NCBI RefSeq assembly: GCF_001278705.1
Contig: NZ_CP012600.1
Span: 2,170,190 to 2,234,189 of the forward strand
Reading direction: 5' to 3'
Origin: Bacillus gobiensis
GTDB taxonomy: Bacteria > Bacillota > Bacilli > Bacillales > Bacillaceae
Length of the DNA stretch: 64,000 bases
Positions 24,750 through 54,285 of the stretch are shown here, piece after piece. The notes beneath the pieces are model-generated. The model was not told the DNA's origin and searched no databases. It worked only from the letters and a program-made list of their open reading frames with translations. The translations under genes were made by a program, and so were the position numbers. Positions within the stretch are counted from its first letter, which is position 1. Every line of letters starts with the position of its first letter.

Positions 24750-24876
24750 CAAAAAGCCTTCTTTCCTTAAAATGAAACTTTTATTGTCGGGGAGTGCTAT
24801 GGCGCTCCTCCGCTAATTGTAAGCCCGCATCAGAATTTTACGGTTCCTGATATTTCGGGAGCATTTTAGAAACGAA

Positions 24877-33477: not shown

Positions 33478-33560
33478 CTATTTATGCCGCATTATCGGGC
33501 TGTAAAAAGAGTGTAAACGAAGAATCCTAGCACCTCCACTTATTGAAGTTTCCCTTTATG
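33478..33560 (-). repeat. Short copy of the metK-downstream element
   Basis: Read on the minus strand from the stop codon of the isomerase gene, this 83-bp sequence shares three ordered blocks with the longer element at 52606-52768. The blocks are CATAAAGnGAAACTTCAAT with its AGTGGnGG continuation, TAGGATTnnTCGTTTACA, and a block ending in nCGGnATAAATAG. It lacks the middle of the longer copy. No coding capacity is seen. Confidence 0.75.
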
Positions 33561-39087: not shown

Positions 39088-39347
39088 ATTATTACAAAAA
39101 AACAAATAACCCCTCATCCCTGAAAAGGGACGAGAGGGTTTCCCGCGGTACCACCCTTGTTAGCATACAAAAAACGCATACTCACTTGATATCAATAACG
39201 TTGATGGACGGCAATGCTTTATGAAACATTGCAACTCCGAGGCGAGTTCAGAATAAGCTTAATATTGACTTGCACCAACCGCCAATTCTCTAGAAAAAGC
39301 CAGTTTCTTACTATTCCTCTTCAATGTTCTTACTATAAGCTAATCTT
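39088..39347 (-). ncRNA. T-box riboswitch of leuS (leucine)
   Basis: The leader holds the T-box sequence AGGGTGGTACCGCGG (around 39141-39156 on the complement). Stem I carries an AGTA motif and GGTTGGTGCAAG, and GAACTCGCC contains a CTC leucine specifier. It ends in a terminator hairpin (AACCCTCTCGTCCC with its partner, then a T-rich run around 39092-39110). Uncharged tRNA-Leu is expected to bind and favour readthrough into leuS. Confidence 0.93.
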
Positions 39348-52538: not shown

Positions 52539-52565
52539 AAACATTCATCGTTCAAAATCAAATGA

Positions 52566-52590
52566 AAAGCCGCTAACCAGCGGCTTTTTT
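52566..52590. terminator. Terminator downstream of metK
   Basis: AAGCCGCT and AGCGGCTT flank a four-base loop with T runs on both strands (TTTTTT on plus; TTTTCATTT on minus). Read on the minus strand it would end metK transcripts that have passed through the element at 52606-52768. Confidence 0.85.
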
Positions 52591-52605: not shown

Positions 52606-52768
52606 CTATTTATCCCGTATTAACGGGCAGTAAGACCCCCACCTTAAGGTTTTGAATGTAAACGAGTAATCCTAGGTGAGGGATAACTGCCCGTAAAAAC
52701 TAGGGTTCGTTCAACTAACAATCAGTGGGGGAAGAAAAGCCCCCCACTGATTGAAGTTTCACTTTATG
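52606..52768 (-). repeat. Structured noncoding element after metK (long copy)
   Basis: A 160-bp element begins on the minus strand at the metK stop codon (CATAAAG). It contains two stem-loops. The first pairs AATCAGTGGGGG-type arms at 52719-52731 and 52740-52753. The second has outer arms CGGGCAGT/ACTGCCCG at 52624-52631 and 52686-52693 and an inner CCCCCACCT/AGGTGAGGG. A shortened copy lies at 33478-33560. It holds no open reading frame. A mobile-element-derived repeat or a structured RNA are both possible. Confidence 0.75.
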
Positions 52769-53963
52769 AAAGTGCTTCAGCCTTCAAAATTTCGGCTTTA
52801 TCTGTTCGTTCCCAAGGCAGATCAAGGTCATGGCGGCCAAAATGTCCGTAAGCTGCAGTTTGTTTATAGATTGGACGTCTCAAGTCGAGCATTTTAATGA
52901 TTCCTGCCGGCCTTAAATCAAAGTGCTTTGAAACGACCTCTGTCAATTTTTCCTCAGAAGCTTTTCCAGTTCCGAATGTATTGATTGAAATGGATACCGG
53001 ACGGGCAACACCAATGGCGTATGCAAGCTGTACTTCACAAGACTCCGCAAGTCCAGCAGCTACGATATTTTTTGCAACGTAGCGGGCTGCATAAGCTGCA
53101 GAACGATCCACTTTAGTCGCATCTTTACCGGAAAACGCTCCACCGCCGTGTCGCGCATAGCCGCCATAAGTGTCAACGATAATTTTCCTTCCGGTAAGAC
53201 CCGCATCTCCCTGCGGTCCGCCTATCACAAATCTGCCGGTAGGGTTAATGAAATATTTTGTCTGTTCATCAATTAGCTCTTTCGGCACTACTGGCGTAAT
53301 CACGTACTCCTTAATATTGCGCTGGATCTGCTCCAGTGATATTTCCGGATGGTGCTGAGTTGAGATGACAATGGTGTCAATCCGGATCGGCTTGTCGTTT
53401 TCATCATATTCAACTGTCACCTGTGTTTTTCCATCAGGTCGAAGATACGGAAGGATGTCTTCCTTTCTCACTTCCGTTAAACGTCTTGAAAGTTTATGTG
53501 CAAGTGAAATCGGCAGAGGCATGAGCTCTTTTGTTTCATTGCAGGCAAATCCAAACATCAGCCCTTGGTCTCCTGCTCCGATTGCTTCGATCTCAGCATC
53601 TGACATCGTTCCTTCACGGGCTTCCAATGCTTTGTCTACACCCTGCGCAATATCGGCAGACTGCTCATCTATTGAAGTAAGTACAGCACACGTCTCAGCA
53701 TCGAAGCCATACTTCGCGCGAGTATAGCCAATCTCTTTTATCGTTTCACGGACCGTTTTTGGGATATCTACGTATGTTGTTGTTGTGATTTCACCGCTTA
53801 CAAGAACGAGACCCGTTGTGACAGAAGTTTCACAAGCAACTCTTGCATTTGGATCCTTTTTCAAAATCTCATCTAAAATACTATCAGAAATTTGGTCACA
53901 TATTTTATCCGGATGTCCCTCTGTAACCGATTCTGATGTGAAAAGACGACGTTGTTTGGTCAT
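52764..53963 (-). CDS. metK: S-adenosylmethionine synthetase MetK
   Basis: A 399-residue enzyme that forms SAM from methionine and ATP. The family motifs [18 protein letters not shown](L)MFG and the phosphate loop GGGAFSGKD are intact. Nearly identical to B. subtilis MetK except for the last residues, which end EALS, where the stop codon is shared with the repeat element. The start follows AGGAGG. The leader carries a SAM-I riboswitch. Confidence 0.97.
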
Positions 53964-54099: not shown

Positions 54100-54285
54100 G
54101 CTCAAAAAACCTTATCCTTACTAGAGGAAAGGTTCTACATTTGCAAGCCTTTCACTCTTATCGATCAAGGTATGAATAGAACCTTGCGACAGGTTAGCAC
54201 CTTGGTTTTCATTGAATAAGAAAACCGGTTGCTGGGCTTCATTGGGCCTGTCCCTCCGCCAGCTCGGGATAAGAGAATCCGTTCA
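54100..54285 (-). ncRNA. SAM-I (S-box) riboswitch of metK
   Basis: On the minus strand P1 is CTCTTATC/GATAAGAG (54268-54275 with 54155-54162). Within it lie the S-box core pieces GAGGGACAGGCCC, GAAGCCCAGCAACCGG and AAGGTGCTAACC. A terminator hairpin (AACCTT with AAGGTT, then TTTTTT, 54101-54134) follows. SAM binding should end transcription before metK. Confidence 0.95.

What the first reader, a model, noticed from the sequence alone, without database searches (positions are those of the whole stretch)
52606..52768. A structured, noncoding repeat inserted between the metK stop codon and its terminator
Read on the minus strand, about 160 bp starting exactly at the metK stop codon hold two strong stem-loops and no ORF, followed by the real terminator at 52566-52590. 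A related, shorter copy occurs 19 kb away. A repeat with conserved structure placed in 3' UTRs could be a mobile miniature element, a right-end/guide-RNA-like remnant of an IS200/IS605-type element, or a small regulatory RNA made by processing metK transcripts. The identity is not known to me.
Basis: partly seen in the sequence, partly recalled or inferred. Interest (0 to 1): 0.72.

Follow-up and report, generated by a model that had tools for sequence, protein, structure and literature searches.

The report
Mobile bcr1-like repeat after metK
The hairpin-rich stretch behind the metK gene is one of about fifty copies of a tiny jumping DNA element, of the kind called bcr1 in Bacillus cereus, which turns out to be spread through many spore-forming bacteria and, in three of the four genomes examined, to sit as if inserted into the single-stranded side of the replication fork.

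Summary
In detail: window 52609-52767 (minus strand) is a 159-bp repeat from ATAAA to ATAAA, the first of which contains the metK stop codon. It folds strongly (z -7.4) and sits between metK and its terminator. It is not metK's ancestral 3' UTR: 29 of 29 inspected same-genus relatives lack it there. The genome holds 40 left-end and 38 right-end matches (reversed patterns 0). A covariance model finds it in 77 of 249 genomes of the order (own included), 47 of 105 genera. An exact empty site, a split DUF4269 gene and tandem copies sharing one ATAAA show insertion at TTTAT/ATAAA. Base pairing is under selection. In three high-copy chromosomes of three families the TTTAT-first strand lies mostly on the lagging-strand template (64/82, 60/69, 62/70); the window's own genome shows no bias (27/55). 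It is a non-autonomous mobile repeat of the bcr1 kind (about 155 bp, TTTAT ends), far wider than the "B. cereus group-specific" bcr1, probably moved as single-stranded DNA. No mobilising enzyme was found; the Y1 transposases examined do not fit.

The parts
52609..52767 (-). complete 159-bp bcr1-like element, ATAAA ... ATAAA
   Evidence: 168 bits, E 4e-35; this sequence is one of the 12 that built the model
52763..52767 (-). left ATAAA (TTTAT on the plus strand), containing the metK stop codon TAA (52766-52764)
   Evidence: sequence; position relative to the ORF
52609..52613 (-). right ATAAA (second copy of the target motif)
   Evidence: sequence; for another copy of the family a single ATAAA stands at the empty site
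52713..52758 (-). stem P1 (around AATCAGTGGGGG ... CCCCCACTGATT), where longer copies carry a Bacillaceae-1-like insert; approximate bounds
52623..52694 (-). stem P2 (ACGGGCAGTTATCCC ... GGGTCTTACTGCCCGT); approximate bounds
52565..52588 (-). terminator-like hairpin beyond the element
   Evidence: a similar hairpin follows the metK stop closely in the 29 inspected same-genus relatives
33481..33559 (-). shorter (79 bp) internally deleted copy with both ends

Best explanation
The element is a non-autonomous, structured mobile repeat of the bcr1 kind. It inserts at the pentanucleotide TTTAT (ATAAA on the other strand), so that the motif stands at both ends and one copy remains at an empty site. 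At metK the target was the ATAAA that spans the stop codon, so metK stays intact and its mRNA gains about 160 nt of hairpins before the terminator. Shown: repeat family, ends, target motif, exact empty site (one pair of genomes), gene interruption (one case read through), selected base pairing, wide patchy distribution. Inferred: the element moves in trans as folded single-stranded DNA taken up by the lagging-strand template, by an enzyme not yet identified, in a way resembling IS200/IS605 and integron-cassette single-strand recombination. Any effect on metK mRNA is incidental or unknown.
For: About 55 places read in this genome. Model matches in 77 of 249 genomes (own included) and 47 of 105 genera of the order, against 0 of 36 same-genus relatives in a DNA search. 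Exact empty site: G281 has one ATAAA where G115 has ATAAA-element-ATAAA. An element splits a DUF4269 ORF, and joining its flanks at one TTTAT gives one frame matching PF14091 at 3e-56. 12 same-strand tandem pairs share one ATAAA. 10 of 43 places with a left end start at the stop codon of an ORF of 220 codons or more. Covariation: 140 double-change cells against 31.4 shuffled and 9-26 in slid controls. Orientation tied to replication: G115 64 of 82 against 48% expected from intergenic TTTAT (p 4e-8) and 30 of 37 between convergent or divergent genes; G276 60 of 69, or 55-60 depending on where the arms are cut; G204 62 of 70.
Against: The window's own genome shows no replication-strand bias (27 of 55; many copies there are decayed). 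No autonomous partner was found in about 3.5 Mb of held loci, overlaps included. G000 has no Y1 transposase match at E<=1e-5. Three minimal copies of 40-54 bp fold weakly as single-stranded DNA (z -2.9, -0.5, -1.3), so a full fold is not needed for those copies to exist. P1 shows more G-U than A-C pairs on the ATAAA-first strand (44 against 16 after leaving out the G-U-dominated pair), which could mean selection on RNA of that strand rather than on the TTTAT-first DNA strand.
Confidence: 0.75

Rival explanations
1. A MITE of a classical IS200/IS605 or REP-type (RAYT) Y1 transposase.
For: Fixed TTTAT target, hairpins near the ends, lagging-strand orientation. 13 of 14 genomes searched have some Y1 match.
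Against: G000 has none. The Y1 proteins differ in length between genomes: 154 aa in G115, about 180-290 aa in several others. None of 30 fetched Y1 loci (of 53 matches) is bounded by the element's ends. In two of them an element copy lies within 1 kb of the gene, which I take for chance, and four more show only a 14-base left-end motif with 2 mismatches. REP elements typically carry a GT[AG]G foot (PMC6006769, passages), not TTTAT.
Confidence: 0.25
2. A tyrosine recombinase acting on folded single-stranded sites (integron-cassette-like): TTTAT as core, head-to-tail arrays sharing one core.
For: Same-strand tandem copies sharing ATAAA (only same-strand pairs were looked for), folded structure, lagging-strand bias. 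PMC6542083 (passages) calls BCR mobility site-specific-recombination-like.
Against: No integrase was tied to the element; no gene search was made for one.
Confidence: 0.2
3. A host-beneficial cis-RNA element (mRNA stabiliser or small RNA) that is kept in 3' UTRs, mobility being secondary.
For: Strong fold and covariation; placement at stop codons. PMC3446304 (passages) reports that 40-51% of bcr repeats in two B. cereus strains are part of an mRNA and that only bcr3 correlated with mRNA decay.
Against: Sites are not conserved: absent at metK in 29 inspected relatives. Copies also lie between convergent and divergent genes (37 of 82 in G115) and in a gene. Between same-direction genes in G115, 24 run against the genes and 21 along them.
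Confidence: 0.1
4. The ordinary conserved 3' UTR of metK.
For: Lies between stop codon and terminator.
Against: 29 of 29 inspected same-genus loci go from stop codon to terminator without it; about 50 copies elsewhere.
Confidence: 0.01

Closest known systems
bcr1 (Bacillus cereus repeat, group A: bcr1-bcr3)
   Same: About 155 bp, intergenic, tens of copies, folded structure, TTTAT motif (TTTAT and copy numbers: passages of PMC6542083; length, gene interruption and TTTAT at both ends recalled from Okstad 2004, not held). Elements with the same 26-base left end occur in 27 IMG/VR contigs; 24 of them share one flank, and in the one read (L150) a heterocycloanthracin/sonorensin-family gene lies beside it. 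I take these for B. cereus-group prophages.
   Different: The 2004 paper's title (seen in reference lists) calls bcr1 specific to the B. cereus group; this family spans the order. Longer nested forms, 40-55 bp forms, an exact empty site and replication-strand bias are added here. I had no published bcr1 sequence to align.
IS200/IS605 elements and their MITEs
   Same: Sequence-specific short target, hairpins near the ends, lagging-strand-template preference (abstract of PMC6006769 for IS608 and ISDra2).
   Different: No transposase with these ends found; no Y1 match in G000.
REP/REPIN with TnpAREP (RAYT)
   Same: Intergenic hairpin repeats thought to be moved in trans.
   Different: 158-bp two-stem unit with TTTAT at both ends instead of a short palindrome with GT[AG]G foot; no linked RAYT seen.
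Bacillaceae-1 RNA (RF01690)
   Same: Long copies carry a Bacillaceae-1-like module inside stem P1 (22.9-30.1 bits in this genome, below the cut-off 35; above cut-off in other species).
   Different: The metK copy lacks it. Bacillaceae-1 is a separate dispersed module: 14 of 17 top loci in the order have no element ends around it.

Membership tests
bcr1 kind | unit of about 155 bp | tested here: met
   159 bp at metK; 73 of 204 end pairs in held loci (some loci overlap) are 155-160 bp, the commonest class
bcr1 kind | TTTAT motif at both ends | tested here: met
   G115: 62 of 77 paired copies have exact ATAAA at both ends; G000: 15 of 28
bcr1 kind | mobile: interrupts genes, absent from otherwise conserved flanks | tested here: met
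   (one empty site, one gene)
bcr1 kind | sequence similarity to the published bcr1 consensus | not testable with these tools
   the 2004 and 2011 papers are not held; supplements not available
bcr1 kind | restricted to the B. cereus group (reported) | tested here: not met
   77 of 249 genomes, 47 of 105 genera of the order; a distribution claim, not a structural feature
IS200/IS605 MITE | short fixed target sequence, single at the empty site | tested here: met
   single ATAAA at the empty site
IS200/IS605 MITE | insertion into lagging-strand template | tested here: met
   64/82, 60/69, 62/70 in three genomes; not in G000, 27/55
IS200/IS605 MITE | shares ends with an autonomous Y1 element | tested here: not met
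   30 fetched Y1 loci of 53 matches in 13 genomes, none bounded by these ends; the other 23 were not read
IS200/IS605 MITE | guide sequences pairing with the target | not tested
   no clear candidate by eye; no computation made
TnpB/IS605 guide RNA (right-end remnant) | homology to a tnpB 3' end or right end | not tested
   no tnpB search was made
REP/RAYT | GT[AG]G foot and linked RAYT gene | tested here: not met
   the bases at the foot are TTTAT by sequence; G000 has no Y1 match
Bacillaceae-1 RNA | RF01690 score at or above 35 | tested here: not met
   no match in window; best in long copies of this genome 30.1 (7 loci)
Rfam family of any kind | gathering score | tested here: not met
   only T-box and SAM in the window

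The most novel reading that the evidence does not exclude
bcr1-type repeats are the visible half of a widespread Bacillales system that moves folded single-stranded DNA at replication forks with an enzyme that is neither a recognised Y1 transposase nor encoded by the element: a host- or trans-encoded single-strand recombinase whose only known substrate is this TTTAT-ended, two-stem element, which also picks up other hairpin modules such as Bacillaceae-1 RNA.
Probability: 0.35. Interest if true: 0.78.

Novelty: new variant of a known kind. Interest (0 to 1): 0.6.

Why it matters
How bcr1 repeats move has no identified enzyme in the passages I could read. The replication-strand bias, seen in genomes of three families, narrows it to mechanisms acting on single-stranded DNA at the fork and makes it testable. 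The wide range shows that elements of the bcr1 kind are not a B. cereus-group peculiarity. It also places an orphan RNA family (Bacillaceae-1) among dispersed repeats that nest in mobile elements. For annotation, hairpins found after a stop codon in Bacillaceae should be checked for ATAAA ends before being called regulatory RNAs.

Tried and rejected
Search for an autonomous parent: pairing of the two ends up to 4.5 kb apart over about 3.5 Mb of held loci (overlaps included) gave only chance pairs or neighbouring copies. The 863-bp copy at G000 194693-195555 holds other DNA, not identified. Y1 transposase (PF01797): see rivals. First idea that Bacillaceae-1 is simply the core of the element: rejected, since 14 of 17 top RF01690 loci lack element ends, although the 10 G115 places listed (of 32 matches there) lie in elements (7 with both ends matched, 3 with one). 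Replication bias as an effect of gene orientation: rejected for G115, since it holds between convergent or divergent genes and against the TTTAT background; not tested so in G276 and G204. Discrete 53-56 bp copies (17 in G115 tiles) might be transposing mini-units, but deletion between the two GTGGGGG repeats gives the same product, so I draw nothing from them. Plasmid and phage collections gave one plasmid (Pseudalkalibacillus) and no phage. G-U against A-C counts favour the ATAAA-first strand only modestly.

Full report
What is there. On the minus strand metK (52764-53963) ends in TAA, and that stop codon lies inside an ATAAA that opens a 159-bp element, 52767-52609, which closes with a second ATAAA. 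The element has two long stems (P1, P2), no ORF of 60 aa or more, and folds with z -7.4 as RNA and z -6.8 as DNA of the other strand. metK's terminator-like hairpin follows at 52565-52588. Rfam at its cut-offs knows only the SAM riboswitch and a T-box in the window.

It is a dispersed repeat. BLAST of the element against its own genome (one 4.6-Mb contig) gave 43 pieces at E<=0.01 (40 of 52 candidates scored). The left end matched 40 times and the right end 38 times with at most 3 mismatches, the reversed patterns never. Reading 55 places showed copies of 40, 53-55, 79, 95, 133-161 and 188-227 bp that keep both ends and differ in the middle, besides solo ends and one 863-bp case. Of 28 copies paired by script, 23 have exact ATAAA on the left, 20 on the right and 15 on both. 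The second copy in the window is 33481-33559, 79 bp; a weak third candidate is 24767-24864 (25.4 bits, E 0.005).

It is inserted, not inherited, at metK. All 37 same-genus genomes searched (own included) have metK. In the 29 relatives whose locus I read, a hairpin terminator follows the stop codon closely and there is no element; seven more were not read. A DNA search found the element in 0 of 36 same-genus relatives at E<=1e-5. Yet a covariance model built from 12 copies (R1) found it in 77 of 249 genomes of the order (own included), 47 of 105 genera, at E<=1e-6 (at most 12 candidates scored per genome, so copy numbers there are floors). The 80 rows shown carry 23 first words of names, such as Cytobacillus, Niallia, Peribacillus, Lysinibacillus, Natronobacillus, Oceanobacillus and Sporosarcina; one short Modestobacter contig is probably contamination.

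Insertion is exact and target-specific. In G115 a 159-bp copy lies at 2004916-2005074; in its congener G281 the two flanks meet at a single ATAAA, with 116 of 126 positions identical across the joined site. In the window's genome a copy at 4106264-4106419 splits an ORF whose two halves, joined at one TTTAT, form one frame matching DUF4269 at 3e-56. Twelve tandem pairs on the same strand share one ATAAA (opposite-strand pairs were not looked for).

The fold is selected. Over 81 diverse copies aligned to the model, 93.7% of cells pair. 19 of 27 pairs show changes on both sides, and 140 cells show such changes against 31.4 in shuffles and 9-26 when partners are slid. The alignment was fitted to the model, so it leans towards the structure, and four rows lack most or all of the 3' part. 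G-U exceeds A-C on the ATAAA-first strand mainly in P1. Minimal copies fold weakly as single-stranded DNA (three folded, z -2.9, -0.5 and -1.3).

Orientation follows replication in three genomes. G115 has 130 left ends and 121 right ends. In about 1.6 Mb of its 3.65 Mb, 64 of 82 left ends put the TTTAT-first strand on the lagging-strand template, against 48% expected from 2223 intergenic TTTAT/ATAAA sites (p 4e-8). Between convergent or divergent genes it is 30 of 37 (p 2e-4), so gene direction does not explain it (arms from GC skew). In G276 it is 60 of 69 with arms cut at 1.1 and 2.72 Mb, and 55-60 for other cuts that the GC skew allows. In G204, from coarse 3-kb skew samples of which one is out of line, it is 62 of 70. 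These genomes belong to three different families of the order. G281 and G102 were in the same pattern search (49 and 12 matches) but were not analysed, since few places were listed. The window's own genome shows no bias: 27 of 55 (arms); many of its copies are decayed. Lagging-template preference is the mark of IS608 and ISDra2 (abstract of PMC6006769), of single-strand integron recombination and of some retrohoming (the last two recalled).

The mover is unknown. Y1 transposase matches occur in 13 of 14 genomes searched but not in G000. They are of different lengths, and none of the 30 fetched loci (of 53 matches) is bounded by the element's ends. No longer relative with a gene between these ends was found in about 3.5 Mb. 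I therefore commit to single-strand, replication-coupled movement in trans (probably HUH- or tyrosine-recombinase-like chemistry) with the enzyme open.

Nested modules. Long copies carry inside P1 a module resembling Bacillaceae-1 RNA (22.9-30.1 bits here, cut-off 35). In 18 loci of other species chosen for long copies, RF01690 reached its cut-off 16 times. Twelve of these lie between both element ends, two beside a left end only and two beside neither. Of the 14 with an end, 11 run opposite to the element and 3 with it. The 10 G115 places listed, of 32 matches there, lie in elements. RF01690 itself is a dispersed repeat (59 of 120 genomes; up to 38 matches among the 38 candidates scored per genome), and 14 of 17 top loci lie outside elements. 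So Bacillaceae-1 is a separate repeat that this element can host.

What it is called. PMC6542083 (passages) describes bcr1-bcr18 of the B. cereus group, with movement tied to TTTAT motifs. PMC2267715 (passages) lists Bcr1 of B. anthracis as a stem-loop family of 167 bp (147 in the literature). The 2004 paper that defined bcr1 (about 155 bp, TTTAT at each end, interrupts genes: recalled) is not held. Copies with the same left end occur in 27 IMG/VR contigs; 24 share one flank. In the one read, L150, a TIGR03601 bacteriocin-family gene lies beside it, and a neighbouring stretch resembles plasmids of B. arachidis and B. paramobilis, the latter a B. cereus-group species. I take these for bcr1, but could not align to a published sequence, and the B. 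cereus-type copy found no B. cereus-group plasmid match. The listings showed no paper on bcr1-type repeats outside the group, on bcr1 with lagging strand, or on Bacillaceae-1 as a repeat; most subscription papers are not in that library, and I read only the passages named.

Noticed in passing
window 54155-54275 and 39123-39333 (-): SAM riboswitch upstream of metK and a T-box leader, both above Rfam cut-offs; ordinary.
   Followed up: no
window 24767-24864 (+): Weak model hit (25.4 bits, E 0.005), possibly a decayed third copy of the element.
   Followed up: partly
G-genomes of the order; loci L450-L466: Bacillaceae-1 RNA (RF01690) is itself a dispersed repeat, with tens of matches in several genomes (59 of 120 genomes matched); 14 of 17 top loci lie outside the TTTAT element.
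   Followed up: partly
L204, L223, L255, L264, L267: Long element copies hold two to five tandem repeats of an inner hairpin of roughly 54 nt (CGCGCAGAGCCCGATTGATTTTTCTAAGGGCTGAAGCCC...), as if hairpins were added one by one (counted by eye).
   Followed up: no
G115, 17 copies in tiles; other genomes too: A discrete 53-56 bp form joins the two GTGGGGG repeats of P1 and P2; either a hairpin-driven deletion hot spot or a mini-unit that still moves.
   Followed up: partly
L148-L174 (IMG/VR): 24 of 27 viral contigs carry the element with one and the same flank, in several internal-deletion states; in L150 a heterocycloanthracin/sonorensin-family gene lies beside it.
   Followed up: partly
G000:C1:194693-195555: A copy whose two ends are 863 bp apart with other DNA between them, behind a 529-codon ORF.
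   Followed up: no
L264 3963-4028 (+): RAGATH-18 RNA (RF03064) match at 54 bits about 0.8 kb from an element copy.
   Followed up: no
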